DNA of 60,000 nucleotides from Strigamia acuminata. Taxonomy: Eukaryota > Arthropoda > Chilopoda > Geophilomorpha > Linotaeniidae. This document shows positions 12,115 through 53,912 of the stretch, one piece after another (position 1 is the stretch's first letter; every line of letters begins with the position of its first letter). A program made the translations under genes and the position numbers. The notes under the pieces are model-generated. The model saw only the letters and a list, made by a program, of their open reading frames with translations. It was not told the DNA's origin and searched no databases. The stretch is taken from contig OX442314.1 in the NCBI GenBank assembly GCA_949358305.1, positions 4,407,087-4,467,086 of the forward strand. Direction: 5' to 3'.

Positions 12115-12530
12115 ATAAGAATTCTAGTAAATCGTTTGTTGGAAAACTACTAACAGTGGATTTTGAGAAATTTTATCAAGACATCTGCCCAGGATCTATG
12201 TACATGGTAATATAAACACAATTACAATCAAATAGCAACGAGAGAAGCAACATCCTTTTTTTTCACTGATAGATTAGGCTATCATTATATAATTTTGGAA
12301 AAATTTACTTCCAATTACTTAAATCCAGTAGTACCACATTGAAAATAAATTTGAGTTATAACAAAGTAACATTTAAAGTCGATTGAAATTAAACGACTAT
12401 TCTAAGTCTTCATTATATTTCAGTACATGTTTCTCAATTCATCGAAACGCCCGTGCTCCAGTGGAAATGAATACAGAGATTGCTACCAAAAGTGCTTGTT
12501 CAAAAGATTAGAAAACAACCTAACATGCAG
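12115..12530 (+). CDS. Gene A exons for extracellular domain 1, C-terminal half
   Basis: Three exons. 12115-12206 (phase 2 in, 0 out) and 12273-12365 (0/0, 31 codons) match in phase and rough length the exons at 51851-51930 and 51999-52094 of gene B. 12424-12530 (0 in, 2 out) carries the DEG/ENaC cysteine pattern P-C-x8-C-x3-C-x10-C ending at the intron. The sequence similarity of the first two exons is weak; their position and phase are the main support. Confidence 0.7.
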
Positions 12531-15500
12531 GTAAAAGCAATTTGTTCCTAACTAATCCTAAAAATGACATTTTATGACAAATTTGTTTAATTTACTAACA
12601 AATGTTACTATAAAGGTTTTTGCTAAATCAAACAACCAAAGCCCTGCATTTTTGCTCAAAATCAAAGCCACTGAACAAAACCATTATAATTTCATTAAAT
12701 TCTTTTTTTTTTCTTAAGATTTCCTTTTCTGAAGATGAATTTACCTCTCTGTGAATGTTCAGATGCTATACACGATCAATACAGCATAGTCAATAAATTA
12801 ATTGATACCACAGACCCAATTACTACTTGTGCTTGTCGACCTCCATGTCAGCAAATGGTTTTTACACCCTACACAGACTCCGGCAAAGCAGATGATAAAA
12901 AAATAATGTCTTTGACTTTAGCACTAACCAATGATAAAGTCACCGTGTATCAAGAGCGGTTCACTTACGACGTTATTGCTTTACTATCTGATTTAGGCGG
13001 CAATTTGGGACTATTTCTCGGCCTATCGTTACTTTCATTACCTGAAATCACTTGGTATTTATATTTTGTTGTGACAACTAAGCGCAAAATTACCAAACTT
13101 TATAAGATTCGACGTCTCTATGAGGAATCCAAGAAAGAAGTCACTGAGAGTGAAAAGAAGATCAAAACTAACGGAGTTTTAAAAAAGTTTAAGTTGCTGC
13201 TGGTTGTAATTAGTGCAGGATTCACTCTATACTTGTTGCTAAGTCGTTTAAACTACTATTTCGAAGAACCTATATCAAAAATGATTACCATAGATCAACG
13301 GCGCTACATAGAGTTCCCATCCGTGACACTCTGTGGTGAAAATCGCAGTGATGAGATGGAACAAGCCAGATTCCAGTTACTTAAACAACCAAACAAAACT
13401 TGCAATGACATATCACCGTGGCAATTGGTCAACAACAATTTGTCATTAGAAGATATTTGGAAGACCCTAAATATCCATCGAACAATGAGTGTTAAGGACA
13501 GGTTCAGCAAGGTATACATAGATTTAAAAAGCATACAATACAAAGTGGATAAAATATATATTTACAGTATTATTATGGATACACAACAATACTAAACATA
13601 GCAACGAGTCTCGTCCTACTTCCATTTGGTTATTGTTCACAAGTTAACACAGGTAATTCACATGGAAACCTTATCAGTTTAACAGAATATGACTACACTT
13701 ATAACAACTCCTATTGGTTGGCATATTTATTGTGTATATTGAAATATGACTAGTGCTTGTGACAAACAGATATGCAACCCAGACAAATTTATTGATATCC
13801 CTACAACATGTACTGAGAATTGCTGCCAGAGTTAACATTAGAGACATTGAACAAATCACCTTTTAGTTCTGTTTATCAATGATCTTACCAATTAATCATC
13901 TCCTTGAAAACGTTTTATAACGAATCGCAATATAAGGAATTATCCATATAACGAATTGTGAAAAATGACTTGGTTGGCCATCCATAGAACACCATGTTTA
14001 ATATTTTCGATATTACGAATTTAAATATAACGAATTATTCGTTATAACAAACAAGTTTTATGGACACTATCATACCCACAAGCTCTTGTTATAACATATT
14101 TTCAAAACTGATCACATGACTCACAACATCCTATGCCCATGTTTAGAACACATTTAAAAAAATAAAAAAAATTTTATTTCAAAATGGCTGCAAAACGAAA
14201 GGAAATTTTGATTGAGGACAAGTTGAACATTTTTAATGCCTTTGACAATGGCAAGAAGCCATCAATTGAAGCAGTTGAGTTTAATTTGTCCTGTTTTACA
14301 ATTTCAACAATAATTAACAAGAATTTATGAATAAATAATGTTGTATACCGGTATGATAAAATTTAATTTTTTTCATCTAATTTGTTTTAATGAACTCTCG
14401 TTAAAACAAACTGATTTTTCGTCTCTCTTGCGATTCGTTATAAAGAGTTTTGACTGTATACTGAATTGGAGCCCATATCACTAATAGAATACCATGCATA
14501 CAATTATTTTTTTTTTTTTTAGAAAAAACGAACCATATAACAGCAGATGTTACAATTGCTCTTACAAAACTTTTTCCTCCAGAAGTTTGTGAACAACATC
14601 TATGGGTAATATCAAAATAAACTTATTTTAGAACTAATAGTTAATATCAAGCAAACAAAAATGTGCGTGGATCTCAATCAGTATGCGAGGAAATCTAGAT
14701 TTTGGAATTAGAACATCCGCATTCTATTAAAGGACTTGCGGTAAATCTAAATGTTAGACTAGCCCAAATATTCTGTTGCAAAAGCGGTATTACAAGCAGG
14801 TAAGATAATATCACGAGTCGACTGCTTCGGTATTTCCCATTTGTCAAGAATCGATGAGCGATGTTATTTCATACATTTAGCTTATGCTTTCAAATTCTGA
14901 TTGTATAATAATTTAACCAAATTCTTTTTAAATCCAATTACAAAAATTTTCAGTTTTTTCTAAATAACCCAGAAGAGGAAGTCAATATTTTAGCACCCAT
15001 GTCTATGGCCTATGGTTCTATGACTATATTTGCTCTTCGTATATTTAAGGTAACATGCGGGTGCATTCAAAGTTTTAATTTTTACAGTCGTGGACAAAAA
15101 AAACTTTGCTTCAGTTTATCTACCGGGTGGCATAAAAATACATTGAGATTCAATGACATCAATCTTGACCTGATCTCTCGACTTGCTCTAATATCAGTAT
15201 TAAAAGATAAACCGAGCAAATAATGATAGGCAAACTTTATACACCTAAACTGAAAGGAAGTCGTTTTTTGTCCACGACTATACGACTGCTTTTCATAAGT
15301 TTGGAAAGGTGACAAAAATTATTGTGTTATAAACTTCAGGAGTTAAAAAATTAATAATAAATAAATTTGATGAACTTTTTCATTGATGAGTAAACAGGTC
15401 GATTCATATACATCAAATAAAGCCAAATACGCGATTCCAGTAGTGAATATTTTTTTCACAAAATCGTTCTTAGCAAAAACTATCTGTTTCAAAAGTTTGG

Positions 15501-18500
15501 AAAGATGGAAAATTTGTTTCATAAGTTTGGAAAGTTTGCTGAAATTAGCCAATAACAATGAAGTGACACAGGTTTATGCAACGTGACATTACTCCTGTAT
15601 ATAAGGAATCACCAGACACGGGAATTTTAAAAAACTTTCTTGTCAACATGGGAAGAACTGGCGCAACTGAAATTTCAAAATGCAACAGATTCAAACCCAA
15701 TTATCTCAACAACCTGACCACGGATTCTTTTTTTTCATAAAGCAAACTTTCTCCTCTACTTGACGAAAGTCGTCTATCGTTTGCCTTTTGAAAAAAAAGA
15801 ATCCGTGGTCAGGTTGTTGTGATAATTGGGTTTGAATCTGTTGCACCAAATCCGTGGTTTGAAATTTCAGTTGCACCACATTCAAACGGTCGCCACCGCT
15901 TGACAACCAAGAGGGGTCGAGCCTTGTCCTTTTCAGGATTTGTAGAGGAGAATCCCCTCTATCGTTGGCTTTTTGAAACAAAAGAATCCGTGGTCAGGTT
16001 GTTGAGATAATTGGGTTTGAATCTGTTGCATTTTGAAATTTCAGTTGCGCCAGTTCTTCCCATGTTGACAAGAAAGTTTTTTTTAAAATTCCCGTGTCTG
16101 GTGATTCCTTATATACAGGAGTAATGTCACGTTGCATAAACCTGTGTCACTTCATTGTTATTGGCTAATTTCAGCAAACTTTCCAAAATTATGAAACAAA
16201 TTTTCCATCTTTCCAAACTTTTGAAACAGATAGTTTTTGCAAAGAACGATTTTGTGAAAAAAATATTCGCTACTGGAATCGCGTATTTGGCTTTATTTGA
16301 TGTATATGAATCGACCTGTTTACTCATCAATGAAAAAGTTCATCAAATTTATTTATTATTAATTTTTGAACTCCTGAAGTTTATAACACAATAATTTTTG
16401 TCACCTTTCCAAACTTATGAAAAGCAGTCGTATAGTCACGGGACGGCCCCTAGAAAGTTGTCCGGTTCTGACAAGTTAAGCCAGCAAACTCACTAGTCTA
16501 GACAAATGTCACATATCCTGACTAGATAGAACAATAAAAAAAAGTTTCCAAATTCTTCTGATGAATTGCGGGTTAGTCATCAGAATAATGATAATACATT
16601 TGTCTAGTTGTGCCCTATCAAGCTTGTTTGGACAGTGCTGTGTACTGACCACACAGGATGCATTCCATATTAAACTATGATTATTTTATCAAATAGACCA
16701 TTCGAAGAAATACAAAACTTAATCCATGTGAACAAAATAAAACTGCTTATTTTATGTGTCAAACTGCTTGCATGCAAAACAATTTATTTCACAGGATCAA
16801 TTGCAGGTATTGTTGTAGTTCTTCTAGCAAATGCTGATAATATTTGAGTGTAATCTAGTAATCATTCCTTCTTTCCATCAATACTTTTATAAAATAAAAA
16901 TACCACCTTTAAAGGAGTTGCGACATGAAAATACAACAGGACTTTATATGATGTATTTTTATACATACTAGTAGTTATCAAATTTTTGGTCAAAAATTTG
17001 ATAACTACAACAATTTTGTTGATTTTAAGGGAATGCCCTTTGCGCTTCACTGCTTTGCTTCAAAATCAGGGAAACAACAAAATTCTGCCAATGACGTCAT
17101 TTAAGGTGTATCCAACAATGACAGTATTTGGAATGATATCAGTATGACGTCACACAGAAATAAAAACACACAATTGTTGAAAAATGTACATAAAACCTAA
17201 TGCTAAAACTTGGAAGTATATTTTGTGAAAATTAAATATATAAAACCAACAAATTGAAAAAAAAATGGCAATTTTTTTTTATAAATTTACTTAAAAAATT
17301 TAAAATCATTCTATTATAGAGTATAAAATTTGCTGAAGATTACAGAAGCCCCACTTCATCAATCACACAAAAAAATATACGATTCCTTTTCAATTTTTAG
17401 CCACAATATCGAACTTTTTGGTTTTTTCTGTATGCAGCTATTGAAATCTATTCTGCCTGTGACGTCATATCCGGTTTCTTGGAGTTTTTCAGAGGTGGCG
17501 GGGCTGAGCATTTTTAATTCTAGTTTGTAGTAAAACTATAACACTTAAAATTGTGAAAAATTGAGAAACATTTTGTTTAACAATACTTAATCATTTTTTA
17601 CAATTATAAAAAAAAAAAACTTTTATGTTGCAACTCTTTTAAAGCCTTGTTCACACTTACGTGTACGCTGCAGATTCACAGCTCAAAATGACGTCACTTC
17701 CTGTGAAGATGCGGTTTTTCTGCAGATTGTAAAAATAGGAATATTTTCTATTATTCTGTGCAATTTTTTCCTAAATTTACCAGCAGCCAATTACAGCTCA
17801 AACAATTCCATCTTGTGAGATTGTTTAGCAAAAACGTCTTTTTGAGCTGCGTATACACACGTTGGAACCAGCCTTTACATTAAGTAATCGGGACGTACAA
17901 GTATATGCAATATGTCCAGACTCCTGATTATGTAATGTAAAGGCTACTTTTGCTATTCATCAACCTCTCCAGAAGTCATAAAACCATTAACAGTTTCATG
18001 TTTGCACGTGACGTCATTCCCATTGAATAACATGTTATTCAATGGGAATCTTGGCGCCAAGTCTCTGTCGATTCATATACGGGGTTTTCAGGGCTTGAAA
18101 GTGTGTCTCAATGGCAGCCGTTAAATCTGCAAGGGTGGACGTCGTTTCCGCCTTTGGGTAGACCAATCTTTTCAACATTCCCATTGAATAACATGTAATT
18201 CAATGGGAATGGGAATGACGTCACGTACAAACACGAAACGAGTTTTGCATACGTTTTAGACTTATTGAATACACCTAGTGCAAAACCAAACAAACACCCA
18301 AAACTCAACTTTTTGCAGGCAGTTTGTATTTGTGAATTCAGTTCAATTAAACTATAGTGCTTGTTTCAGGTTGCCGTACATGTCATCATCAAGTATACCA
18401 TCTTGCAACACGATGGAAGACATTACTCGTGCCCATTCCCAGTATTTTAACAATTACAATTCCAATCAAAAAACTTGCAAATGTAAACAACCCTGTAAAA

Positions 18501-19769: not shown

Positions 19770-20207
19770 GGGGGCGTGTCATCTAGCGCGAAAATATAAT
19801 CCGCAAATCGATTTACCGCAAATCGATTTTTCCGCGAATCGATTTACCGCGAATTTCCTAGTGTGGGTTGCTTTCATTTGCCAAGTGACTTTTATTTAAT
19901 AATTGATTTCATTCAAATTACGTTGGTGTTTACACTCATTCAAATTCAGTCCGTTTTTCCAACTCCTCTATTTTCTCTTTGCTTTTCTGCCCAGCTTCGA
20001 CGGCAATCGAGAACCCCGTATGCAGCGTGTGATTTTATATTTTGAATTAAAAATTTGCGGTAATTCGCGGTAATTCGCGGTAATTCGCGTCGTCGTACTT
20101 CCAATCGCGGTAAATCGATTCGCGATAAATCGATGTCCGAGCACGAATTTTTTTTTCGCGGTAAAGCAAGGTCGCGGAAAATTGAGTCGCGGTAGATGTG
20201 CGGCCCC
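19770..20207. mobile_element. MITE with 9-bp target duplication
   Basis: AACTCATGG occurs on both sides (19761-19769 and 20208-20216). The termini GGGGCGTGTCATCTAGCGC and, inverted, GGGGCCGCACATCTACCGC form imperfect terminal repeats. The interior ends are built from repeats of CGCGGTAAATCGATT in opposite orientations. A 9-bp duplication suggests a MULE-like or related DNA transposon; the superfamily is not certain. There is no transposase. Confidence 0.75.
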
Positions 20208-20579: not shown

Positions 20580-20584
20580 TGTAG

Positions 20585-48200: not shown

Positions 48201-51200
48201 ATCTTTTTGTGCTTGATTTAGTTGCTCGAGCCTTTGTTGTTGCTCTTCGTCAGTAATTAGCCAGGAAGCTTTTTCCTGCTCTAATTGTAACAACTTAACA
48301 TGGTCATTCGCACGTTGTTGTTTTAGTTCGGCATTTTGCTGATGCATTTCTGCATGCATTCGCTCGAACTCTGCTTGCAAGCCTGTTCTGACGATTTCAA
48401 CGTCTTTTTGACATTGTTTGCGAACCATAGCTTTGTGGATTTGTTCCACAGTCATTTCGCTAGTGACTTTTACTCCCTCGAGCCTAGCTTGCTCACGGAG
48501 TGCGTCCATCATGGTTACACGCACGGGAGAATGAGAAACTTCCATATTGGAGTTCTCAGAATCTTGCTGTGCTGCACCTTGAACCGGTGATGAATTCAGC
48601 GAGTGCTCTGCACTTGACGATTGAATTCGTAAATTCAAATCATCGTTTTGCGTCTTGGAACGGCCACTTCCAGTTGGATTATTTAAGTCCAACTGGCCGC
48701 TTGGCGGGGATGGCTGTTGTCGCTCCAACGCTTGCGTGAATTCATTCACGATTAACTGTGCCGAGTCACAGTTAGCTGTTTGATCCATGGCTTCAAACAG
48801 TTCTTGTGACTCAGTCACTTCTTGATCTACGGCTGGTAGATCGATCGCCACTCGTCTCTTCGCCGGCCTTCCTCTCGGTCTCTTTTCGCCTGGAGTCGCC
48901 ATTTTTCAATGAAGACAAAGAAAGGATAGAGAAGAAAGATAAGCAAGATAAAAATGGCGGGTAAATTTTAAACTATCAAAATTTATACAATGACTATCCC
49001 GGACGGGCCCCCACGTGCTGCGATCCGGGTTATTATCGCACTTATTTCTAATAAATAAGCACGAAACCGCAGGTGAATGCTAAAATAGACTTACAATCAG
49101 CGGCCTTAAACTTGTCTAGGGTTAAGTTTATTAAGTAGGAAAATAAAGACACAATTTTATGATAAAAATCACACAAAAGGTTTTATTCGTTATAAATTAC
49201 AATGACTAGTATTATTATGAATTATATATTTATTAATTAAAATAATAATATCACAGATGCGACAAGTCGCGAGAATGAGCGGGAAAACAATGGAGGGCTT
49301 GCAACGACTGTTGCAAGCTACAAAGCGCGGCGAATACGCTTGACAACCAAAGTTGTTAGGAAAATGGCTTCCGCTATTTTCCTCGTCTTCACTCACACGT
49401 ACGATGATCCTCGGATGATGGTTCACGGTGAGTCTTCCACACGAAGTACGACGGCACGGGGCGGTGGTTCACGTTCGGGCAGGCGTCCGTTCACGTCCGA
49501 TGGCGGTGGCAGCAGTTCGCGCTACTGCGACGGCGATGGTTCACGCGACACGGGAAACTTCTCGTTACGATAGCTGGAATTAGCGACGGCTAATTCAAGC
49601 TGAATTGCTGGCTTTGTGCGTTTGTTGCACAAAGATAGCAGGTGAAACTGAAGAACACGAGTCCACTATCAATACTTTTCTTTCAGGAGCAAAAGCAGTG
49701 ATGTTTGTGGTTGTGTGTTATTTTTCAGAGTCCCGATTTGAGCCAAGGCGCGAGCCCAGCACGCTTCAATATTGCGCAGAAAACCTACGCACTTAGCTCA
49801 AATGGGTGCAACTAGTGGTTATTACACCATATTGCACCATAACGGCTAATAACCGTTTTCACCCCGGACAACCTGGGGTGATATGTGCCTAGAGAGGATT
49901 TCTCCCCTCGGTCACATGATCTGACTTGGCGTGTGCCACAGTCAAATTAATTAGAAGACAATTAATTTTATCTTCTAAGTTGGTGAATATTTTGAGATCA
50001 CCACAAAGATGGTCATAAATCTTAATTTTCCCAAACAATGTGAATATGTACACGTGAGTATTTAATTTCATCGACAATTATCACAATTTATTTTGCATTT
50101 CAACAACCACAAAGTTACACACTACATTTTTTCAAAAATGAGCTGTCAAAATTGTGAAATAGTCTGTAATAAAATTTGATAATCATTCTTGAAACCATTG
50201 CATTCAATTTCAAGGTGTTGATAGATCCATCAGCAGTTGTTTATCATTTATTCGCGGATTTGATGCAAACCCTACAAATGAAACATGGCAAACATACAGT
50301 TGGAATAAGAGTGCAAGAAGTAAGGATTAAATTAAAAATTAATTCAAACAGAAAAGAGAATTATTTTCTAGCCATTAATCAGAAGCATTTCTTCGATCTA
50401 TCAGCTTTATTTAAGCACAACTACTAATTATTTACTAACATGTAATAAGGGCCGTCCGTAATGTTGTGTTTTGGTTGACTAGAATTAATATCAACACATA
50501 ACATCAAATTTCTCTAACAAGGTCCAAACAAATTCCCTCCTTCCCTAGAAAATTACATAATAAAAAGAACCACCCAAAGATGCTACATAATAATATAAGA
50601 ATTTGAAACTTGTATTTTAGTATCACTATATCAACACTAAGAAAAATCCATGTGAAAATAATCTACATGAATGCCTACGCCCATGTCTGGTCAAACAAAT
50701 GAAATGCAAGTAAGTCTTTTAATTCGACTCAATAACAGAATTCGATAAAAGAATATTTATTTCTGTGCATAAATCTCAATTCAAAACATTTAAAAAATAT
50801 TTTTTTATCTGACTGTTTTTAATAAAAATTATTAGTTAACTTAAATAAAGGTTGTCACATTAGATTTCCATTTTATGAAGCGAGAAATATGCCCGAATGC
50901 AATGACAAAGACACTTTGATTCAGTACAAACAAATAGGAGACCTTACCTTAGGTGGTAGAGTATCAGAGTGTAGATGTGCTAATTTATGTGATGAGACAA
51001 GTTTCAGCCAAACATTCGACACAACACCTGGTGATGGAGATAAAATAGAAATTTATGTTGTCAATACTTTCGTTCGAACATTAGTCGAACACTTTTCTTA
51101 TGACATCATCAATTTGCTATGTGACATTGGAGGAAACATCGGCCTCCACTTCGGCATGTCTTGCTTGACACTGGTCGAAATATTCATTCACTTATGTAAA

Positions 51201-53912
51201 ATATGCATCAGCAAACCAACAACAGCAAATTCCAAGTTGACAGATAAAATTGAAATGACACTTGAAAAGATGCAGAATAGCCGAAAACCAACTTTCGTTA
51301 ACAAACTGATTAAAATCATAACATCACTATTCTTTGGCTGGATGTCAGTCTATTACATTTACCATTTGATTCATTCTTATTTTCAATTTCCACTCTTGAA
51401 AACGGTTAAACTCATTAGAGATGAAAAAATTCATTTTCCACTCATTATTGCATGTGCAGACAGTGAAAACATATCACATGCTAAAAGGGAATTAGCCCAA
51501 AAACTCAACACAACTGATTGTGATCATTTACAACTGTTCGATTTACTCCATCCACTATCTGAATTCGCAAATCAACCACTGCAATTGTGGAATGCCTCGT
51601 CTCTTCTTCATTTCTACGACTTAGATCGGAGAAATGCTCTCAAGGTAAAAAAGTCAGAATATTAAATTCTCAATTCAAACGTGAAGAAATATAACAAACT
51701 TATAGAATGGGGCAACAGCAGATCAAATTGAATTTATTTATGCCAAATTATCATTACAACCAACAGTGTATGGAATGTGTACTGCTTTTAATAAAGGTAA
51801 AAATAAAAACACAAGTCACTTTGAATTCTCACTAAAACATTTGCACACAGTTGACCGGCCGTTTGCTCGAAAGCAAAACTTTGTAGTGATTTTCAATCTG
51901 CGCAGTGTTCACTGTAGTCCTAAAACAGATGTGAGATAGAACTTCATCCTTCATACTGTTAATTGCAACAGTTACTAATTTGACTTTATGTATTCCAGTA
52001 CTTCATTTTGCCAACAAATCAATTTTTTCATCCGAAATATCGTTTAGATGTATCCAACAATTTAAGTGCTTATATCAACTTCGCCCCTCAAACGGTGAAT
52101 TCAAAAATGATGAATCCACTATACTTTAAACCGATACAATGTTGACCTTGAGCAGGATTACACCTAATGACCTAACTGTGAACTGTGCTCTACTTCGCGG
52201 AAAAGTAATTCTGCTCTTAAGAGTGTCAAAGCATCACGTTTGACAATGAAACAAGGGTTCTAATCGATCACAATGTCTGGAATTCGATTACAAATCTGGT
52301 GTTATGGATTACTTTTTTGTGCCAATACACCAGTGATGCGGCTGGAGTTACGTCAACATTGTATTGGTTTGAGTACAGGCGTATTCGAAAAGCCATTGCA
52401 ACATTTTAAATACTCTGTAGAGTGATTAGACTTCAAAAGTGGCACACAATTCAATCTGCATCAGTTGTAGTTTAAATCTCTTGATTAAAAAAAGTATAAG
52501 TAAAAATAAAAAATGTTTAACAAGTGCTTTTGAATGCGTTATTTGACAGGTTAATCAAATTTGAGAAATTGTTGTCACTTTTGAAAAAATCAAATTTTTT
52601 TTCGGTTTGTGGTCCCAAATTTTTTAATTTGTTCAAATTGCCACCCAGTTGATTAATCTTTCCAGCTTGTTCGATTAAATACTCCGAGAAGTCCTTGCAG
52701 ACCAAATGATGAAGTTTTAAGATGTGAAGAAAACTGCTATGAGAACAAACTTGAGCAACAACCTTTTAATTGCAGGTAACTTGTGTTAGAGAGTTTTGTT
52801 ACAATAATTACTTTATTAGAAAATATGTTGTTTTAAGGAATGAGTTTGTTATCTATGTTGATCGTAAGCATTGCATGGTGGGATTGTTGGCACTTGTGAA
52901 TGTAGGTGAAATTCAACGTGCACGACATTTATTGAGTTCTGTACAGCCATCAACTAATTAAGTGATACCTAGAAACCAACTAACCAACCATCCACCCACA
53001 CTCCCTCCCACCCAATCATTAACCCAGTGATCCATTATATACGCAATATTCGTACGCGCGACATGTAAGAATAATTCTTACACGCGATGTCGCGCGTATG
53101 AATAGCACTGCCATGCGTTACTGCGATATCGCATGTTCTGAAAAATTTAACTTAAGATAACTAAGATCAGTGGTATAGTACTGATTTAATGGTGCTCTAC
53201 AACTTTGTAATTGGAAATTTTGCTGTATCTTAAACGGTTTAAAAGTTAGCAAGTGAATGACCTTGAAAATGACCTTCAAGGTCAAATTTGATGACGTCAT
53301 TGGATTGCTCTCACCCAACTTTCTATACGATCGCTGCATCAAAGTTGGCCTAGATGCATTTGCTCAGGAAATATTTGGAGGGAACCAGACGTTTAGGACA
53401 CCGTGTATAGTAAAATGGTTAAACCAATAGGAGTTAGGACAACGTTGGGACTGTTTGGAATATACCTACAAACACTCAAACATACAAGTGTATGCCCAAT
53501 TTTTTATAACTGGAAAAAATCATGTGCCATGGCACACTGTATTTTTCCATTAAATATTGTTGTATTACTAGACTTCCATCCATGGATAAGAGTAAATTTC
53601 CTCTTTGCCTATCTCAAGAGACGGCTAAAACAACTTACGAGACATATTTGAAAACTCAGTTGAAGACAAACCCCCCAGGAAGACTGTTCCTGCGCAGCAT
53701 CTTGTCAAGAAACCATCTTCAATCCTTCAATCATCACCAACTTAGTCAACTTCGACATTTGGGCAGCCTTTGTTTGGTATAGCTTTGAAAATAACATCAG
53801 AGAAATAATTGAAGAACAGCAACAGGTTACCATTGTAAAGTTATTGTGTCAGATTGGATCTATTATTGGTATTCTCACTGGTTTCTCCTTATTTTCTCTT
53901 CTTCAATTTTGA
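23762..53912 (+). CDS. Gene B: fused two-domain DEG/ENaC channel, split by retrotransposon
   Basis: Exons: 23762-24244, 24320-24392, 24448-24483 plus 50010-50053 (one exon split by the 25.5 kb insertion), 50215-50319, 50621-50709, 50864-51644, 51706-51796, 51851-51930, 51999-52094, 52666-52775 and 53572-53912. Every junction is GT/AG with matching phase. The coding length would be 775 residues if the insertion and one extra C (53671-53676) are discounted. Layout: N-terminus, TM1, extracellular domain 1, TM2, linker, TM1, extracellular domain 2, TM2, stop. It is complete at both ends, so a two-domain subunit is the whole product. As it stands the allele is broken by the transposon. AATAAA lies at 53940-53945. 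Confidence 0.87.
24320..24483 (+). CDS. Gene B exon 2 and left half of disrupted exon 3
   Basis: 24320-24392 (phase 0/1) ends at AGTC|GTAAGT. 24448-24483 follows after a CCCATAG acceptor and reads I-S-F-P-Y-G-N-A-A-Y-K before the retrotransposon LTR begins at 24484. The frame resumes without loss at 50010. Only the last four bases (AAGA) are duplicated. Confidence 0.78.
24484..25473 (-). repeat. Element II 3' LTR (990 bp)
   Basis: Repeat of 49016-50005 (offset 24532). It starts TGCTGCGATCC and ends CCACA. It contains many short perfect hairpins, for example 24765-24773 with 24778-24786, 25045-25052 with 25057-25064, 25080-25087 with 25095-25102, and 25241-25247 with 25253-25259. Confidence 0.93.
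25474..25490 (-). promoter_or_regulatory. Element II polypurine tract
   Basis: On the minus strand, an AAATGGGGGGATG-type purine run ends exactly at the LTR boundary. Confidence 0.75.
25526..27772 (-). CDS. Element II ORF3: unknown 748-residue protein
   Basis: Lies between pol and the 3' LTR, where retroviral env would be, but has no signal peptide, TM segment or obvious fusion peptide. It starts with a basic, Trp-containing region (residues 1-130). An Arg/Ser/Pro-rich low-complexity middle (about 190-300) follows. Then comes a region with D-P-R-L-M-D-F-Q-R-Q-L and W-T-A-P-M-G-L (about 400-500), a P-P-P-P-P-P-P run, and a C-terminal block (about 620-720) with W-L-E-D-H and A-G-R-D-L-C-T-V. 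The C-terminal block is conserved in another copy at 59925-60000, so the ORF is maintained. I do not recognise a family. It could be an accessory RNA- or capsid-associated protein; that is inference. Confidence 0.75.
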   Translation of the reverse strand: MPTQHPLIFRAALPEKIRRLKTANNTWWKLRHDFSKSALQGLGAKGRFIERLHVNGVDEIEWTLDESPPGPLAAELLHNQWPVTPRERHERRRVLRSTGINYGALHQVRKNLKTTQREVVQRYRKSVRDGNPQFPATQTELHQLALAGCFNDFPGFFPSKALRAAAAQLRVDENRQLAREHEAEEQARCALPFYREDEIPAPAAINPPPQDEDLRVGRLPPPDQATRPMFRESSRDREERQKRSRPYSTEAQPPRPQSRRGRTPETFGSSSSLSFESDSTIQSAQSSRTASTFKVDNPATPYAMRRVVGDISPDCSVPVPGHASRLPEHGYVSRLPAGVSNLQLQPFFSESFGPQWTCYEQQPIRAQQEVLQKLDAYQSAQIAESQKDWQRLAERLELSDINTIDDPRLMDFQRQLIPGMTRVLYPGVLPSPGQALAAITYLWTAPMGLSEKKVELWYHLRLDPPTILAELIKQVVANGETEEEAAVRLRTEWSFAKATAQMAGRTTLPVTSATAAASLAVFQSAQEGAGCSFWPENAGSSQTPAGVQRVVEPRKLTGVGRAQGRGVTPSSTSAPALVFLGSPSHFDDATTEDSRPPPPPPPAKPETKVKPLKKESAFKTLMRLYPHFYLTPDTRTLLSNNHKLWRQVFMWLEDHIRVLSPPSVLHDRLLRARLAPEDPIEFAALGFFNRANSARIIQVWLHVNPGMVSGPNAGRDLCTVNERSNPRDDATDMMRPLTPERTQGMDES
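27773..28515 (-). other. Element II spacer between pol and ORF3
   Basis: 743 nt without a convincing ORF. It contains two CRE-like TGACGTCA octamers (28400-28407 and 28456-28463), and the GGTTTAC/GTAAACC-type ends near 28490 can pair. It may carry an internal promoter or splice acceptor for ORF3; this is inference. Confidence 0.45.
28516..32118 (-). CDS. Element II pol: protease end, RT, RNase H, integrase
   Basis: 1200 residues. It begins with the second half of the retropepsin (L-L-G-C-D-F-M), separated from the first half by element III. RT: C-I-D-F-R-P-I-N, Y-W-Q-I-E-L and A-Y-L-D-D near residue 282. RNase H: V-H-T-D-A-S, with D-A-L-S-R-A-P at its end. Integrase: zinc finger H-x3-(S)G-H-P-G with C-Q-G-C near residues 738-780, then the D, D-N-G-P-Q-F (about 865) and E (V-E-R-T-N-R) triad. 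A GPY/F-like module (N-G-P-Y-V-I-V) and an acidic Ser/Asn-rich tail follow. All catalytic residues are present. The frame is compatible with the protease segment at 45225-45885 because the nested insert plus duplication is a multiple of 3. Confidence 0.93.
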   Translation of the reverse strand: MTKYPMVLLGCDFMNKLKIQPNPQTMSWNFTQPVDADLPYIPQALLDRYLEKIEEPDSSFMTFAKAYAASVTQGKIDEENFIQKLVEEANLNLEQSKLLEKMLSKHKRIISKDPGKTHLVKHKIELDTEKPIRVPFKSINPQKREIIRQLCQDMIDKGVVVKAEGDYGMRPVLVMRPGNDPRLCIDFRPINTHTKYNPPQMPTIEEILREIGEFEWVSTIDLTKGYWQIELRPEDREKTAFWSPMGRLMFLVMPFGLVNAPTTFQELMEKVLGDVYRKFAWAYLDDIIVVSKSFEEHIKHLDIVFKKLAEANLHAHPGKTHLCRKELIFLGYKVGVEGLAVDPKKVAAITQFPAPTNLKELQRFLGMVNFFHRLIKNLATVAEPLRPLLKKDAEFDWELHHQAAFDAIKDLLTNAETMKMPDLYMPFIVHTDASRQGLGAALTQKKIVDGQEVEMPCVYASRSLQPAEKNYTVTELECLAVVWGLRKFRPYLEYTTFTVQTDHQALKWLMSLSDPSGRLARWQMELMAYSFEIQYVKGPLNVIADALSRAPVSAPDEPEDDGDNDDLLSYCPSPCRSWQMGKLNELPKSIIVNEDDQALINFCINMHDPSGTPDVELRAMMAKKFELPTTNVLIKAFAAKIAKQLECDPPTRDDIIAAQKADKFCQHIRNYLLNKQYPSYIVTRLQRRNFERHASTYLIEEDMLLHYHPTSTDELGEDGRALKVVVPRKLIYKIIWLMHGHPLSGHPGIARTMYRTRRVYTWKGMKRDITRFIQHCQGCQACKPRSKTEIEGAQIGPFGPFDCLSVDLSGPKPRTRKNNTHICVIVDVATHWPELFPMCNPTAIKVANTIYHLSMTFGFPRQIISDNGPQFRSQVYKEFCKKFDMSRTPTSIYHPQSNPVERTNRDIKYLVSIYLDIHDQWDEYLREFAFSLRTTVTRGRDYSPAFLNFFRELRIPWDPRIPEGILVIDPKNPHLYVQKLEAIIAETYQHMMSHVLDLRRRVEAEKSDKKFDNFGQNDLVWRESHILSNAAKGIAAGISPKRNGPYVIVKRLQGGAFQLRRLSDNKIYPAVHGTELMPYFPVFNQEIWLEGEEVGQKTKNIVNTLDDAKLSKIPVENTESSEKSKLKNNEVDEINKRLENVSLDENLEKEMFLEKEKISNNEENNSSDIGDDADDNLNKLDCTSRKSKYNLRSRVPRVKT
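32113..33152 (+). repeat. Element III 5' LTR (1040 bp)
   Basis: Direct repeat of 44185-45224 (offset 12072). It contains AT-rich sequence in the first third. Small internal ORFs are identical in both copies and are not called. Confidence 0.94.
33157..33175 (+). promoter_or_regulatory. Element III primer-binding site (tRNA-Arg-like)
   Basis: TGGCGAGCTAGACAGGATT, 4 nt after the LTR. It resembles the complement of tRNA-Arg 3' ends (TGGCGAGC..CAGGA) with a few differences, judged from recalled tRNA-Arg sequences. Confidence 0.55.
33303..35219 (+). CDS. Element III gag
   Basis: 638 residues. The N-terminal ~280 are Gln/Arg/Pro-rich with a coiled-coil stretch (about 140-185). The capsid-like region begins near residue 300 (I-P-Y-F-D-P) and has R-A-Q-R-W-W-M-A-L, then F-x-L-I-F-R-Q-V-F and the S-x2-K-Q-K-P-G-E-S-T spacing typical of Ty3/Gypsy Gag. 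There is no classical CCHC knuckle; near the end there is only C-P-V-C. Gag ends at 35219, 24 nt past a -1 slippery site through which pol is made. Confidence 0.88.
   Translation: MASRDALSQSSVSDVEAEQAHTLPLPDSPTHEPDQQQELLVQPISTDVPFSNPWRTYAQMEADQLQHEREAAAARDQWEENRRHLQDSLMERSQIVDGMRAVREDIQRGPPPPYQPAFMQPEPQQHRRNPPALTMEALMRVLREDRRELQHELRQELLESMRQIRRELNDRVEEFIHSHNERTQPEPPAPEAGSGATRRGREGARGADFSFGDTGRASGPRRTGSYSPRRRQQHSQQGDTTSNVPRDPPPNPDPDSAQRGSQGIPLSASRQQPHTRSQLSLESEDQRQAAQVGRYKLKVEKIPYFDPDEATFDTVDLFLGKLYAHMFTMGAPEGIYLKVYVVLALRNRAQRWWMALTPKPNNWEDFELIFRQVFSINSALANVKLSQRKQKPGESTMSFLSEMIHYLNIAGYKDKGLQWERVQGMMQTQVVQLMRSWCIRTIDDAVKMGNDVDNRLQLDSLRTFEYKQCGVSDQEMPLPAGVGPATRTRTEEEKLNQQSTSSRSGHFSRFNKVFTALLEDMLACALDPEDPNSEETNKDPPKESASAAAQKSDVHAMTATTAPTPRTDTQHTCPKDVVIFPAAKEAPSEPKLPKNAMWRKTPTDKWFMSDRQSWRPVCPVCGKEWSRQSGNASGLLKA
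35141..39961 (+). CDS. Element III pol: protease, RT, RNase H, integrase
   Basis: The frame is -1 to gag and overlaps it. True entry is probably at the slip site (35195) rather than the ATG at 35141. Residues counted from 35141: protease D-S-G-A near 183, RT catalytic Y-L-D-D near 659, RNase H T-D-A-S near 808 with D-A-L-S-R-A-P at its end. Integrase zinc finger H..C-G-H and C-E-P-C lie near 1231-1270; the catalytic D (Y-I-D-Y-Y-G, ~1300), D-N-A-P-A-F (~1359) and E (L-A-E-R-L, ~1393) follow. A GPY/F-like module ends the protein. Between RNase H and integrase is a ~230-residue Pro/Gln/Arg-rich insertion (about 970-1150), long for the family. All catalytic residues are intact. Confidence 0.94.
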   Translation: MEACVPRLWQGMESSVGKRKRPAQSMSPESGSDINIKDSTEKKTEESPDIDGSTKPSTPTPEAPSAVREDNNKSLTPSTDIKLTTLIKTDSSKSKSKIPGVVTPQPTKSAQLSSVKAKETPKKPTSLTTQSETLKTNFVLLSPEELQKSEEPIIEITKTDRFNREAPYIKITWANVSFVALLDSGAQTCVMSESLFNKLKANMGLELLELHETVRTAADDKIPVKGSVKLSVRAPLAVISFICLIIPKTSEDLLLGRDFCRAVGLCTDFELCQWYLKGSPERRQFMTLEQANKSESVLLFPIKKPDDTKDSAKDVPKVVINNINCILLEHRPLSQEIFEYPNDDAQHQIKRIRNRTRDQWSLIWSPKRKDSIKKSRKFNSSLFSTLSQRRRARRQRRRLYELSPTIKQLNTQGRQLLRRVDENALMARVHDHSTISELPLDVNVLQYQPSSDPTQLDWIYDQLWSSLTVPQIRLLIQTLRPISKVFREEVGLCNNTQFEVNLKPDFRPIHVPVRPVNPAKKMVIDAYLDQKLKQGIIRRSKSDCAVAPVVVPKKTGDWRTAMDFRPMNAQTLPDVYPLPDIDNIFSYLGGSNWFSIIDGREAFHQIGVRPGDERFLAFITHRGLFEYVRMPFGPINGPATLQRAMNKTLSKYLYKFVFVYLDDVIIFSKTFEEHVQHLKIILQALDEAGFTMNANKTELCRTSLEVLGHIVEAGHIKPNPNKVTAIQYFPAPTNIKELQRFKGMIGYYQSFFPNYSKTCEVFRPLLKKDSEWNWTIQHQEAFNSLKRGLAEPTLHRRFPDWTKPYILQTDASYSGLGAALMQLNDQGERTPIAFASRALNSAEKNYSVTEIECLAAVWAVKRFRVYLEMMNFYLESDHLSLKWLFQQREPKGRLARWVLSLSEYRFTFLYCSGAQNRVADALSRAPVEPSEPLDADDSPLVDETCYIAYFDDPNDWPKLPIINIIGVGLAAAQQRNNAAVMTRAQKRQQQIKPKLGRPKGSKNKKRPPPNYQVLTRARARQQAQVSTPPGAVAPLPPLMSPLPSPNVPTASFPTPNMLSPPAGPSGAARPNYDGYGGPDSDSSDDSTTYRPAWMGRAGFMPQQVRQDRSQFQRNATRRPVADEQQDEEEDEAERLHEAPQDHQPFRLIPTINEIIRRQHEDTWSAELIEYLDQGHLPNDQVQAARIRYRAVDFAIYKGMLCRYPPIDINKIRRRRQIYLPLVLREQYFKALHYPPSCGHLGVEKTLHRLRARVYWPKMKEDVLLWIQKCEPCQRAKPLNRLPYGPMIMAKPRHLFHTIYIDYYGKKPRSIGGHCYALVIVDAASRWLDVRLTETSDWKTTIKQLQGFIQRWAFPKVIISDNAPAFRSMEFQAACQSFGAINRYTAVYHPQGNLAERLNQALKNCILAYIEEHVRWDVHIGYFVLAINSAYQASLQYSPYQMVTGQEARYPGDFDSDTDDGQPLPPARARETHELMRELRNNATANLQRAQIRHERWFDRKRRPHDFKPGDFVSIKNRQLSSADRQFAAGLRQRTEGVYVIHKLTGPNTVILMDKDGRRMLPYNVVELRHWFNNDDDLDQTDATMIEKHVAAFTSEIETIIASFSIK
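35189..35235 (+). promoter_or_regulatory. Element III -1 frameshift signal (GGGAAAC plus stem)
   Basis: The heptamer G GGA AAC (35189-35195) is in the correct gag phase. After a 6-nt spacer, GGCCTGCTC (35202-35210) can pair with GAGCGGGTC (35227-35235) over 9 bp including two G-U pairs, with a 16-nt loop that contains the gag stop. Slipping back by one leads directly into the pol frame. GGGAAAC is a known retroviral -1 slip sequence. Confidence 0.8.
39962..40491 (+). other. Element III spacer between pol and ORF3
   Basis: 530 nt of AT-rich non-coding sequence, with a GTTTCACTTTACGATAATTA-like pyrimidine stretch and an AG just before ORF3a. A subgenomic promoter or splice acceptor is possible but not demonstrated. 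Confidence 0.45.
40492..40962 (+). CDS. Element III ORF3a: 156 residues with DnaJ-like zinc motif
   Basis: Starts M-A-S-Y-D-P-K-V after a spacer. Residues ~62-85 have C-P-V-C-S-G-T-G and, 11 residues later, C-R-A-C-R-G-G-G. This pair of CxxCxGxG-type motifs is like half of the zinc-binding centre of DnaJ. The remainder is basic and unrecognised. It ends at TGA (40960-40962), but the same frame is open on both sides of this stop for about 950 codons in all, so ORF3a and ORF3b may be one protein by readthrough or may have been split by mutation. Confidence 0.65.
   Translation: MASYDPKVTITIPKPTQKGYPKYLPMPPIEASGEGLVPRFHPDHPNDQSFPNYELCPVCSGTGFEIYQLRAPRECRACRGGGDLRRCKFRKWMRLMFAYVLGYESIDKTLLAGVDFPPPRIPFGSANAIARFRHAHASYLARIKQLAKEKGIRPLT
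40963..43365 (+). CDS. Element III ORF3b: unknown ~780-800-residue protein
   Basis: Open directly after the ORF3a TGA; the first ATG is at 41026 (779 residues). There is a Thr/Val/Ser-rich region near residues 150-250. A folded-looking segment (~330-480) follows, with R-Y-L-Q-G-F-D-R, W-N-E-L-F-K-M, and helices rich in Glu/Lys/Arg. After an acidic Ser/Glu stretch comes a C-terminal helical block (~680-770). No signal peptide, TM or glycoprotein features are seen, so it is not env-like. I recognise no domain and see no clear similarity to ORF3 of element II by eye. Its position after pol and its intact frame suggest a maintained accessory function. Confidence 0.7.
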   Translation, partial: KYPEGAYIIAGEQPAELPDQFVTPEGKTYDVESGIELCLTAPNVIADAKRAYSEPERVAADLPFQHSNLRPRHTYEERSTHRLKEYTQKVTKRIGAEANRDTHFVTGRSGPTSSASSIIVEEDGAVGGAPAALPVVKPTEELSLGDQVIKKVKKNEENRREREKISNINTMSTPIIKTESSVTAAEAKLTNVTTVTTAAPIVIPYFYVVKNKSSLIETSESSQTARPVDVTTVTQSNVTPKMMTSVAATSVPITYSKIATSNTQMDTIADFNKKLIKTDFSPQVDRDIKALLNFTPSSSIANIAAEIARDAEECAKIHDVKKLESKISNPIAKAISAVSSGSTSSEGCASLKPRYLQGFDRNGCTMRPDRIFTQMSEIFRRHELEILYPMENRGQGRINLRSEGWNELFKMSINLDFNVSASDFKTVVGTIFGRLGNIAKEIEAKMTKDCTGDEHAVQHIIVHAVHFNLKEIITQMHQSRRDAVKRFREADALKEAQRLEDERNAPAKPPLDPELIMTEDEIKNFSEKILIELAPEKLVQQFEDAIAENPKLADPRTKYSFRYDPVIVADTGKLASELSSDMGSSMSDVESLRESTGDEENHKAFLAAQEHNKIEVIQADEPFRLPGVGRGGAKAGRRSPLMSKMPKMILTPPKESDDSASEVVTRESLREPPQPKEKRLVEPTCALAIMEEIIPIDEIIYSLPWEPTVKLVVDWKILSRLFETIIFSDLHLDHTKGEKVLADLKQYYIEHFLYRVNRISRKCYATSKQQVRVILVKTALRLIYCAIDGSGPSAFMDGNV
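43316..43513 (+). CDS. Element III small Cys-rich ORF
   Basis: 65 codons overlapping the end of ORF3b in the +1 frame. The last 30 residues carry nine cysteines in C-C-x2-C-x3-C-x2-C-x6-C-x2-C-x2-C-x-C spacing, which looks metal-binding. It could be a separate peptide, or the C-terminal end of ORF3b reached by a frameshift. Confidence 0.4.
   Translation: MRSTVLAHLHLWMATSKRLYLKTYSDFAPSKNPYTNCCVCELYCDNCDTNDKCYNCLKCDCYAPR
43514..44171 (+). other. Element III 3' non-coding region
   Basis: Strongly AT-rich, interspersed with short GCGCC-containing phrases (TTGGCGCC, TTAGCGCCTAA, TTGCGCC). No supportable ORF. Confidence 0.5.
44172..44184 (+). promoter_or_regulatory. Element III polypurine tract
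   Basis: AGGTGGGGGGGAA immediately precedes the 3' LTR. Confidence 0.85.
44185..45224 (+). repeat. Element III 3' LTR (1040 bp)
   Basis: Same as 32113-33152. It ends CGTGACA and is followed by the ACTT duplication. Confidence 0.94.
45225..45885 (-). CDS. Element II protease, N-terminal part of pro-pol
   Basis: Entered from gag by -1 frameshift at 45885. About 150 Lys/Glu-rich linker residues lead to the retropepsin core (G-M-L-D-S-G-A-N-K-S-F). The frame runs to the ACTT duplication where element III interrupts it, and resumes at 32112. There is no good ATG near the start of this frame, which supports production by frameshifting. Confidence 0.88.
45845..45891 (-). promoter_or_regulatory. 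Element II -1 frameshift signal (AAAAAAC plus stem)
   Basis: On the minus strand the gag frame reads A AAA AAC (45891 to 45885) two codons before its TAG stop. After a 5-nt spacer, GACGCAG (45879-45873) pairs perfectly with CTGCGTC (45851-45845), and a CCA/TGG helix is possible inside the loop. Slipping back one base opens the protease frame. AAAAAAC is a classic retroviral slip heptamer. Confidence 0.85.
45879..48902 (-). CDS. Element II gag
   Basis: 1007 residues, long for a Ty3/Gypsy Gag. An AT-hook-like R-G-R-P near residue 10 is followed by acidic Gln-rich sequence. A long coiled coil with repeated N-L-R-L/E-A-N heptads spans about 165-300, and an R/S/H/D/G/P-rich low-complexity stretch about 390-550. 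The capsid domain (about 580-770) has W-D-R-V-I-P-x-A-Y and W-F-R-R-K-D-F-x-K-W-D-D-F. A CCHC knuckle C-x2-C-x4-H-x4-C lies near residue 965. The stop overlaps the frameshift region. Confidence 0.9.
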   Translation of the reverse strand: MATPGEKRPRGRPAKRRVAIDLPAVDQEVTESQELFEAMDQTANCDSAQLIVNEFTQALERQQPSPPSGQLDLNNPTGSGRSKTQNDDLNLRIQSSSAEHSLNSSPVQGAAQQDSENSNMEVSHSPVRVTMMDALREQARLEGVKVTSEMTVEQIHKAMVRKQCQKDVEIVRTGLQAEFERMHAEMHQQNAELKQQRANDHVKLLQLEQEKASWLITDEEQQQRLEQLNQAQKDLEIANENLRLANANLREANTNLMTAELTAPVRAREAIPSTSRNYENYAAEQAARAKRLAQRENEVFLARQQSVIDAGQAAKSQSTAEQLLRADLAAQARENEILRADLLTVQENFAVVVQKVQDVCGEDNFAKPAPVLQKGASKSPELIDLTSAKPKVSRQSSWTDSDDSRSSRGSRNSHHSRKKRKRQPDPTEYHSPNVPQNSDRFFSNSDRLIGLLERKNKEREKPHDRGRSHDNPREGSPKRDCHNDIRDGPRYRGNPPGGDPPGGDSSDGHGGGHSRDHNSNGNRGGRGPPNGDRRPPDGDDPPDPDPPPNPNYESASDTDSSHPSVRGRSRHRTRSRTQRPDFYTKDEIDQLLRQNAQQQRKNRRDKIILQKINEFTSDKWTHQTTDEKFIRWDRVIPHAYNGNWQAGSNLLLEIFELGKVHSFGCEGALAHLVPRILVGDVKEWFRRKDFTKWDDFVKQFMFKFGESSEDIKTLWRCLKQRKGESLHSYMLRAENLLGRMPHAVTDATADDQFRAGLTEYSKNILMMSDAPDPGKFSELNEFMEVNQLRIDEKYKAYLTDSERSAYLKREKRLAEQNNETFNGLKLLQPPSYEDFLDEVEGKSSKKESSKKDVKNPHSVFKLHANITGAETPSSEAEEAEEEEEAGDETLALLAKAAALLAKNNPVAGKWKPKMKSKKVSFDASKVNTERNSKSPAVSPERRSDARSRSASPAATKKKSPATDPCNLCKKLGHWQKDCPSSKKDKPVSTAEFEKAVKIITDMFRKNL
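48996..49013 (-). promoter_or_regulatory. Element II primer-binding site (tRNA-Pro)
   Basis: On the minus strand, TGGGGGCCCGTCCGGGAT, 2 nt from the LTR. It differs at one base from the well-known tRNA-Pro PBS of gammaretroviruses. Confidence 0.85.
49016..50005 (-). repeat. Element II 5' LTR (990 bp)
   Basis: Partner of 24484-25473. The two visible differences are T for C near 49703 and A for G near 49788; the latter breaks one base pair of the CTGCGCA hairpin. Confidence 0.93.
50010..50709 (+). CDS. Gene B exons 3 (right half), 4 and 5
   Basis: 50010-50053 completes the exon cut by element II and ends CAC|GTGAGT. 50215-50319 (35 codons, 0/0) has V-L-I-D-P-S-A. 50621-50709 (0/2) has the cysteine pattern N-P-C-E then E-C-L-R-P-C and K-C at the intron, like the other cysteine exons of genes A and B. 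No stop arises in the joined frame. Confidence 0.78.
50864..51644 (+). CDS. Gene B fusion exon: TM2 of domain 1, linker, TM1 of domain 2
   Basis: 781 bp, phase 1 base in, 0 out, donor AAG|GTAAAA. It starts F-P-F-Y, then the C-R-C-A-N-L-C cysteines, then TM2 (IGGNIGLHFGMSCLTLVEIF; G-M-S filter with following Glu). A ~45-residue Lys/Thr-rich linker leads to the second TM1 (IIKIITSLFFGWMSV region), then H-F-P-L-I-I-A-C and the end block L-L-H-F-Y. It is the exact structural counterpart of 12719-13511 in gene A. Confidence 0.88.
51706..52775 (+). CDS. Gene B exons of extracellular domain 2
   Basis: 51706-51796 (0/1) has V-Y-G-M-C-T-A-F-N, the G-x-C-x-T/A-F-N signature. 51851-51930 (2/0) follows, then 51999-52094 (0/0, 32 codons, donor ACG|GTGAAT). 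52666-52775 (0/2, 110 bp) has S-P-C-R, C-E-E-N-C and F-N-C-R at the intron. Reading past 52094 reaches a stop at 52144, which supports the donor there. Confidence 0.78.
53047..53102. repeat. Near-perfect long hairpin in gene B intron
   Basis: ATTCGTACGCGCGACAT plus GTAAGAAT pairs with ATTCTTAC plus ATGTCGCGCGTATGAAT with few mismatches and a small bulge (ACGCG). Followed by sequence resembling a DNA-transposon end (TTTAGGACACCGTG near 53391). Confidence 0.7.
53572..53912 (+). CDS. Gene B last exon: TM2 of domain 2, with 1-nt frameshift
   Basis: Starts after TATTACTAG with L-P-S-M, C and then, past a run of six C (53671-53676), the C-S-C-A-A-S-C cysteines and TM2 (IGSIIGILTGFSLFSLLQF) ending directly in TGA. 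The two parts are offset by one base. One C fewer would restore the frame and the family's cysteine spacing. The filter is G-F-S; the acidic residue after LS is Gln-Phe-stop, so TM2 has no cytosolic tail. Confidence 0.8.

What the first reader, a model, noticed from the sequence alone, without database searches (positions are those of the whole stretch)
12115..53912. Fused two-domain DEG/ENaC channel subunits
Genes A and B each join two DEG/ENaC domains in one reading frame: TM1-ECD-TM2-linker-TM1-ECD-TM2. Gene B shows both ends (initiator Met and stop), so the two-domain form is the full product. The family is known as single-domain, two-TM subunits that assemble as trimers. Two domains per chain do not divide into three, so assembly would need three fused chains forming two pores, or a fused chain plus single subunits. 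I am not aware of a description of such a subunit.
Basis: partly seen in the sequence, partly recalled or inferred. Interest (0 to 1): 0.92.

Follow-up and report, generated by a model that had tools for sequence, protein, structure and literature searches.

The report
Two-in-one DEG/ENaC channel subunits in centipedes
A centipede genome carries hundreds of gene copies in which two sodium-channel subunits are welded into one protein, although channels of this family are built from three subunits, so how these proteins assemble is an open and testable question.

Summary
The fusion is real. The window lies in a 237.5-Mb genome that fits Strigamia acuminata, a centipede. Gene A is a complete 11-exon gene starting 3.5 kb upstream of the window: 785 aa, GT-AG introns, no inner stop, TM1-ECD-TM2-linker-TM1-ECD-TM2. 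Intron phases repeat between its halves (0,1,0,0,2), the mark of internal duplication; TM2, linker and next TM1 share one exon. Gene B has that exon, but its last exon is frameshifted and two exons were not located; A and an 801-aa paralogue are the better witnesses. At least 360 loci carry such an exon, 13 with an inner stop. Linker dN/dS is 0.50-0.67. First and second domains form separate groups, favouring one old fusion, with unstarred support. Strigamia maritima has it too. Transcripts and assembly were not tested. Most likely the chain fills two of a trimer's three places; the third goes to a single-domain subunit or to one domain of another chain. Nine searches of open-licence papers showed no description. 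A new variant of a known kind.

The parts
12115..12206 (+). Gene A exon 3 (domain 1 ectodomain; phase 1 to 0). Exons 1 (Met, TM1) and 2 lie upstream of the window at -3461..-3009 and -2937..-2865 (locus L069)
   Evidence: AG/GT borders, frame, match to paralogue and to P0004
12273..12365 (+). Gene A exon 4 (domain 1 ectodomain; phase 0 to 0)
12424..12530 (+). Gene A exon 5 (domain 1 ectodomain, Cys-rich; phase 0 to 2)
12719..13511 (+). Gene A exon 6, the fused exon: end of ectodomain 1, TM2, linker of about 36 aa, TM1 of domain 2, start of ectodomain 2 (phase 2 to 0)
   Evidence: one ORF; two Pfam ASC stretches, 83 bits
13568..13652 (+). Gene A exon 7 (domain 2 counterpart of exon 2; phase 0 to 1)
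14523..14605 (+). Gene A exon 8 (counterpart of exon 3; phase 1 to 0)
14954..15049 (+). Gene A exon 9 (counterpart of exon 4; phase 0 to 0)
16697..16806 (+). Gene A exon 10 (counterpart of exon 5; phase 0 to 2)
18370..18742 (+). Gene A exon 11: end of ectodomain 2, TM2 of domain 2, stop
   Evidence: ORF 18269-18742, Pfam ASC 29.9 bits
23762..24244 (+). Gene B exon 1: initiator Met, TM1 of domain 1
   Evidence: paralogue exon in L073. This ORF alone gave no Pfam family
24320..24392 (+). Gene B exon 2, probable (73 nt, phase 0 to 1, same length as gene A exon 2)
   Evidence: AG/GT borders, phase and length only
24393..50214 (+). Very long intron region of gene B filled with retrotransposon-like DNA; exon 3 not located here
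   Evidence: direct repeats 24484/49016 and 32113/44185, 100% over the 300 nt listed; long ORFs
50215..50319 (+). Gene B exon 4
   Evidence: AG/GT borders; weak match to S. maritima P0001 (E 0.47)
50621..50709 (+). Gene B exon 5
50864..51644 (+). Gene B exon 6, the fused exon: TM2 of domain 1, linker of about 33 aa, TM1 of domain 2
   Evidence: one ORF; two Pfam ASC stretches, 44.2 bits; 49-50% identical to S. maritima P0001 with the linker aligned
51706..51796 (+). Gene B exon 7 (exon 8 not located)
51999..52094 (+). Gene B exon 9 (3' border read by hand)
52666..52775 (+). Gene B exon 10 (5' border read by hand)
53572..53912 (+). Gene B exon 11: TM2 of domain 2 and stop; reading frame shifted by one base near 53670 relative to an intact paralogue

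Best explanation
Gene A encodes a single polypeptide made of two DEG/ENaC subunits joined head to tail through a short basic linker, and belongs to a large family of such genes in the centipede genus Strigamia. Read directly from the DNA: two halves with the same exon layout, joined inside one exon. The simplest history is that a six-exon single-domain gene was duplicated in tandem and its last exon became fused in frame with the first exon of the copy; the two-domain unit was then copied hundreds of times. Supported by tree and substitution rates: one old fusion, since first and second domains form separate groups across three subfamilies, and the linker is kept as coding sequence. Inferred: each domain takes the usual DEG/ENaC fold and contributes a pore-lining TM2 with a G-x-S filter to a cation channel. 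The chain acts as a covalent dimer with fixed domain order that fills two of the three places of a trimer, the third being filled by a single-domain subunit or by one domain of a second fused chain (about 0.5 for this step, by judgement). The size and clustering of the family suggest sensory use, by analogy with the centipede antennal channel PDPNaC1; that step is a guess. The confidence below is for the fused product and the single-fusion history, not for the stoichiometry.
For: Complete 11-exon gene A, 785 aa, all introns GT-AG, phases 0,1,0,0,2 in each half; same layout in a compact gene at C1:7778808-7782360, 801 aa, 51% identical to A over 783 positions. In L074 the stop exon of one two-domain gene is followed by the Met exon of the next, so there the unit is two domains; two genes of the C11 array show TM1 exon, fused exon and terminal exon in order, the Met being visible in one, the other running off the fetched stretch. 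360 loci with a fused exon, 13 with an inner stop. Linker dN/dS 0.67 and 0.50 beside 0.15-0.16 in TM2. Splice acceptor in register in 59 of 60 loci. Tree: first domains one side of a branch 93/93, second domains 92/93, fused domains against the single-type rows 98/99. S. maritima P0001, P0004, P0010 and P0011 run TM2-linker-TM1; of 96 matches of P0011 in this genome 88 start at its residue 1-9 and reach residue 153 or beyond, that is across the junction, at up to 59% identity. Single-domain partners: 515-518 aa open frames on C10 in which both TM1 and TM2 matches lie.
Against: No RNA was available: an alternative promoter, a polyadenylation site inside the fused exon or proteolysis in the linker could still yield single domains. 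The two domain groups in the tree are not starred (93/93, 92/93), and the B-type second domain is a long branch (1.87). dN/dS in linker and ectodomain is not low (0.40-0.71; TM1 0.38 and 0.56), so constraint is moderate. A GT exactly at the reference exon end was seen in only 25 of 30 and 10 of 30 loci, which may reflect a variable end or lost sites. Gene B is frameshifted, and for C1:4742604 no terminal exons were found before the next gene's Met exon, so some copies are probably broken. B-type second domains end about ten residues after G-x-S (L075 and, nearly so, S. maritima P0002), so that TM2 may be short. The structure prediction failed (pLDDT 30.7), so nothing on assembly was tested.
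Confidence: 0.85

Rival explanations
1. The gene is read as one transcript but the chain is cut in the linker, so the channel is an ordinary trimer of separate domains made in equal amounts (a polyprotein, in effect like a dicistronic unit).
For: The linker is basic (mean net charge +4.6 to +5.1) and varies faster than TM2. Co-transcribed DEG/ENaC genes are known in Drosophila (llz, abstract start of PMC2827562 in the listing).
Against: Linker length stays within 32-36 aa in the 60 loci measured, though ORFs were chosen for being open. No cleavage motif was sought.
Confidence: 0.15
2. The fused chains assemble without other partners into something other than one trimer: three chains forming two linked pores, or two chains forming a four-domain pore.
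For: Two domains do not divide into three; first and second domains are distinct types, as expected if each has its own place. In potassium channels two-domain subunits pair up (recalled).
Against: The 22 solved chains matched at E of 0.01 or better are all DEG/ENaC channels, a family of trimers (recalled), and PDPNaC1 of a centipede is a homotrimer (abstract and passages of PMC12714832). No structural evidence was obtained here.
Confidence: 0.2
3. The fusion is a decaying by-product: tandem duplicates fused by chance and most copies are pseudogenes.
For: Gene B frameshift; C1:4742604 incomplete; 13 of 360 loci with an inner stop; high dN/dS in ectodomains.
Against: 347 of 360 loci without an inner stop in the fused exon; two genes rebuilt in full are intact; TM2 dN/dS 0.15-0.16; presence in two species. 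Only two genes were rebuilt in full, so the share of intact genes is unknown.
Confidence: 0.05
4. Assembly or gene-prediction artefact joining two neighbouring single-domain genes.
For: Some S. maritima models look merged (P0004 carries a repeated piece).
Against: The junction lies inside one exon of raw DNA in a HiFi long-read assembly, if the genome is S. acuminata, and recurs at 360 loci.
Confidence: 0.01

Closest known systems
[quoted passage not shown] PMC12714832)
   Same: Best solved-structure match to gene B's fused exon (E 3.2e-8); centipede; similar size per domain (421 aa against about 390-400 here)
   Different: One domain per chain, nine exons, homotrimer (passages)
BRTNaC1, broad-range thermal receptor 1 of the same centipede (PDB 8ymx, 8ymr)
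   Same: Next best match (E 3.6e-5); centipede DEG/ENaC (passage of PMC12714832)
   Different: Solved chain is a single domain of 431 residues
ASIC, ENaC and FaNaC channels
   Same: Same Pfam family PF00858; G-x-S in TM2; a Pro-x-x-x-x-Cys stretch after TM1 (motifs recalled, seen in the sequences)
   Different: Single-domain, two-TM subunits forming trimers (recalled)
Two-pore-domain potassium channels (recalled, no call)
   Same: Natural fusion of two pore-forming units in one chain
   Different: Unrelated fold; there two domains divide evenly into a four-domain pore
Strigamia maritima proteins T1IVW1, T1JEH2, T1JEG4, T1IYF0 (P0001, P0004, P0010, P0011)
   Same: Same TM2-linker-TM1 junction; P0004 57% identical to gene A in the alignment
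   Different: Listed as uncharacterized proteins; models partial or apparently merged

Membership tests
DEG/ENaC (Pfam PF00858 ASC) | Match to the family profile above the curated cut-off | tested here: met
   L074 gene 2: 139.5 bits, 3 stretches, cut-off 23.6; gene A exons 6 and 11 83 and 29.9 bits, gene B exon 6 44.2 bits; gene A exon 1 50 bits; gene B exon 1 alone gave no match
DEG/ENaC (Pfam PF00858 ASC) | Two TM segments flanking a Cys-rich ectodomain in each domain | tested here: met
   Order read in gene A and L074 gene 2; the simple hydropathy scan of L074 gene 2 flagged 3 of the 4 TM segments, TM1 of domain 1 not passing its threshold
DEG/ENaC (Pfam PF00858 ASC) | G-x-S selectivity filter in TM2 (motif recalled) | tested here: met
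   First-domain TM2: strict pattern in 30 of 30 B-type and 23 of 30 A-type loci. Second-domain TM2, read by eye: GMS in A and L074 gene 2, GLS in two C11 genes, GFS in the B paralogue
DEG/ENaC (Pfam PF00858 ASC) | His-Gly motif before TM1 (recalled) | tested here: not met
   Not seen before either TM1 of gene A by reading the sequence; other members were not scored for it
DEG/ENaC (Pfam PF00858 ASC) | One domain (two TM) per chain | tested here: not met
   Two domains in one spliced open frame
DEG/ENaC (Pfam PF00858 ASC) | Trimeric assembly | not testable with these tools
   Fold of S. maritima P0005 failed, pLDDT 30.7; no complex prediction is offered
DEG/ENaC (Pfam PF00858 ASC) | Cation conduction | not testable with these tools
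   Needs expression and recording

The most novel reading that the evidence does not exclude
The two-domain chains do not fit into a single ordinary trimer: they form a new DEG/ENaC architecture, either a double-barrelled channel of three chains or a four-domain pore of two chains, and this release from trimer symmetry allowed hundreds of receptor genes to diversify in centipedes.
Probability: 0.2. Interest if true: 0.95.

Novelty: new variant of a known kind. Interest (0 to 1): 0.87.

Why it matters
DEG/ENaC channels are textbook single-domain, two-TM subunits that form trimers (recalled). A natural, apparently old and hugely expanded two-domain form breaks the match between chain and symmetry, gives a fixed pairing of two subunit types, and makes a clear question testable: how does an even number of domains build a three-fold pore? 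With 360 or more loci it would also be a very large ion-channel gene family for an animal (Drosophila has 31 DEG/ENaC members according to the abstract of PMC12304301 in the listing), and a candidate receptor family in a soil predator.

Tried and rejected
Three-domain chains: S. maritima models P0005, P0006 and P0008 read as parts of a three-domain protein, which would be a whole trimer in one chain. The shortest distance between neighbouring fused exons in my union, 3546 bases, proved to be two separate genes; other neighbours were not read.

Folding: AlphaFold2 on P0005 with 6 sequences gave mean pLDDT 30.7; no fold search was run on it. The second fold job was not used.

Spread beyond Strigamia: three protein searches returned only S. 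maritima. The collection may lack other centipedes and the search needs shared exact words, so absence elsewhere is not shown. The profile search scored only the 7990 candidates sharing most words.

Single-domain genes: TM2 exons that stop just after TM2 were seen in 5 of 8 Pfam loci (the other three gave no frame with the pattern used), and a TM2-exon search gave 150 matches, but last exons of two-domain genes also stop there, so neither was counted as evidence for single-domain genes.

Gene B exons 3 and 8 were looked for by eye and not found. A first exon for gene A was first looked for inside the window and found upstream of it.

Paper searches in whose listings I saw no description: (served to name the genome); several had hundreds of hits of which only the top rows were shown. 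The S. maritima genome paper has no occurrence of ENaC, sodium channel, amiloride, pickpocket, degenerin or ion channel in its main text (PMC4244043, word search only). Of other papers I saw: PMC12714832 abstract and passages, PMC10556566 abstract start and passages, PMC2827562 and PMC12304301 abstract starts in listings.

Full report
What was checked. 12699-13595 and 50826-51665 are open and each gives two Pfam ASC stretches (83 and 44.2 bits, cut-off 23.6). In each, the end of an ectodomain, TM2 with a G-x-S motif, a linker and the next TM1 follow in one exon.

Where it comes from. The window is C1:4407087-4467086 of a 237,517,015-base genome in 157 contigs with C1 66,985,994 bases long. The Strigamia acuminata assembly is 237.5 Mb (237,534,282 bases in one legend) in 158 scaffolds, longest 67.0 Mb, made from HiFi reads at 98-fold (abstract and passages of PMC10556566). 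The identification rests on these figures and on the S. maritima matches; the genome itself is unnamed here.

Gene A. With the 4.5 kb upstream of the window (L069) the gene is complete: Met at -3461, stop at 18742, 11 exons, 785 aa, every intron GT-AG. Intron phases are 0,1,0,0,2 in the first half and 0,1,0,0,2 in the second, with similar exon sizes (73/85, 92/83, 93/96, 107/110). The simplest reading is a six-exon single-domain gene duplicated in tandem, the last exon of copy one merged in frame with the first exon of copy two. A paralogue at C1:7778808-7782360 has the same 11 exons and phases in 3.6 kb and encodes 801 aa, 51% identical to gene A over 783 positions, Pfam ASC 139.5 bits in three stretches.

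Gene B. Exons 1, 4, 5, 6, 7, 9, 10 and 11 and a probable exon 2 were located; exons 3 and 8 were not. The last exon is shifted by one base near 53670; the paralogue at C1:4750651 has it intact. B is therefore a weak witness for the full product, though its fused exon is intact. Its long intron (24393-50214) holds nested retrotransposon-like DNA flanked by direct repeats identical over the 300 nt listed.

How many. Three searches with the fused exons of B, A and a C11 gene gave 147, 146 and 142 matches; 147, 131 and 142 of these reach from TM2 into TM1, and together they mark 360 non-overlapping loci on 14 contigs, 13 of them with an inner stop in some match. Each search scored only its best candidates (147 of 1441, 145 of 1714, 142 of 1578), so 360 is a lower bound for such exons; on the other side, some near-identical neighbours may be segmental copies or unresolved haplotypes, which I did not test, and a fused exon is not yet an intact gene. 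The loci fall into 97 groups at a 150-kb spacing, the largest with 34.

One unit is two domains, where read. In L074 the terminal exon with its stop lies between the fused exon of one gene and the Met exon of the next. In the C11 array two genes show TM1 exon, fused exon and terminal exon in order, the Met being visible in one. In L073 no terminal exons were found after the fused exon at C1:4742604 before the next gene; that copy is probably incomplete.

Is the linker protein? In 60 fetched loci linker lengths are 32-36 residues; dN/dS is 0.67 (B-type, 30 loci, 174 pairs) and 0.50 (A-type, 30 loci, 119 pairs), beside 0.40-0.71 in the neighbouring ectodomain, 0.38 and 0.56 in TM1, and 0.15-0.16 in TM2. 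Pairs share loci and so are not independent, and ORFs were chosen for being open, so lengths in particular are biased. The splice acceptor is in register in 59 of 60 loci; a GT exactly at the reference end was seen in 25 of 30 B-type and 10 of 30 A-type loci.

One fusion. A tree of 16 rows (6 first domains, 5 second domains, 5 rows of the single-domain type, 245 columns) puts all first domains on one side of a branch (93/93), all second domains on one side (92/93) and fused domains apart from the single-type rows (98/99). The first two are below the starred level, and the B-type second domain is a long branch. This favours one fusion before the A, B and C11 subfamilies split. Four of the five 'single' rows are pieces of S. 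maritima models, three of which span more than one domain; the fifth, gene C, fills 47% of the columns.

Second species. S. maritima P0001, P0004, P0010 and P0011 run TM2-linker-TM1; P0002 runs TM2 into TM1 with the linker missing from the model. P0011 gave 96 matches at E of 1e-20 or better in this genome, 88 of them across the junction, at up to 59% identity. Nothing outside Strigamia was returned.

How it most likely works. Shown: the DNA encodes a chain with two DEG/ENaC domains. Inferred: both termini of each domain are cytosolic, as known for the family (recalled), so a basic linker of about 33-36 aa can join neighbours in a trimer. G-x-S was seen in both domain types, so both can line a pore. 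The simplest assembly is a trimer in which the chain fills two places, completed by a single-domain subunit, for which the genome has candidates, or by one domain of a second chain. A double-barrelled or four-domain channel cannot be excluded. The nearest solved relatives include the centipede homotrimer PDPNaC1. Expression, cleavage and stoichiometry are open.

Novelty. No description was seen in the listings of nine searches of an open-licence library; subscription papers and preprints were not searched. I rate it a new variant of a known kind: the domain is ordinary, the chain architecture and its scale are not.

Noticed in passing
S. maritima proteins P0005, P0006, P0008: Gene models with two to three DEG/ENaC domains in the same order; if real, a whole trimer in one chain. 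No fused exon of this type appeared in a capped search of the S. acuminata genome.
   Followed up: partly
   Followed up: no
window 57811-58266 and G000:C1:4479013-4479576: Gene C: Met and TM1 exon of the single-domain type, with a TM2 exon of that type about 12 kb beyond the window that may be its end.
   Followed up: partly
window 300-599 / 7804-8103, 24484-24783 / 49016-49315, 32113-32412 / 44185-44484: Three pairs of direct repeats identical over the 300 nt listed, around long ORFs: look like recent LTR-type insertions, one nested in another, inside introns of genes A and B (ORFs not domain-searched).
   Followed up: no
G000:C1:4742604-4751430 and 4767091-4775917: Two pairs of B-type exons with identical spacing, 24,487 bases apart: a recent segmental duplication or an assembly duplicate.
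   Followed up: no
L073:565-6966: A B-type gene for which no terminal exons were found before the next gene's Met exon: probably truncated.
   Followed up: partly
L075, window 53664-53912, and the end of P0002: B-type second domains stop about ten to twelve residues after G-x-S in both Strigamia species, a shortened TM2.
   Followed up: no
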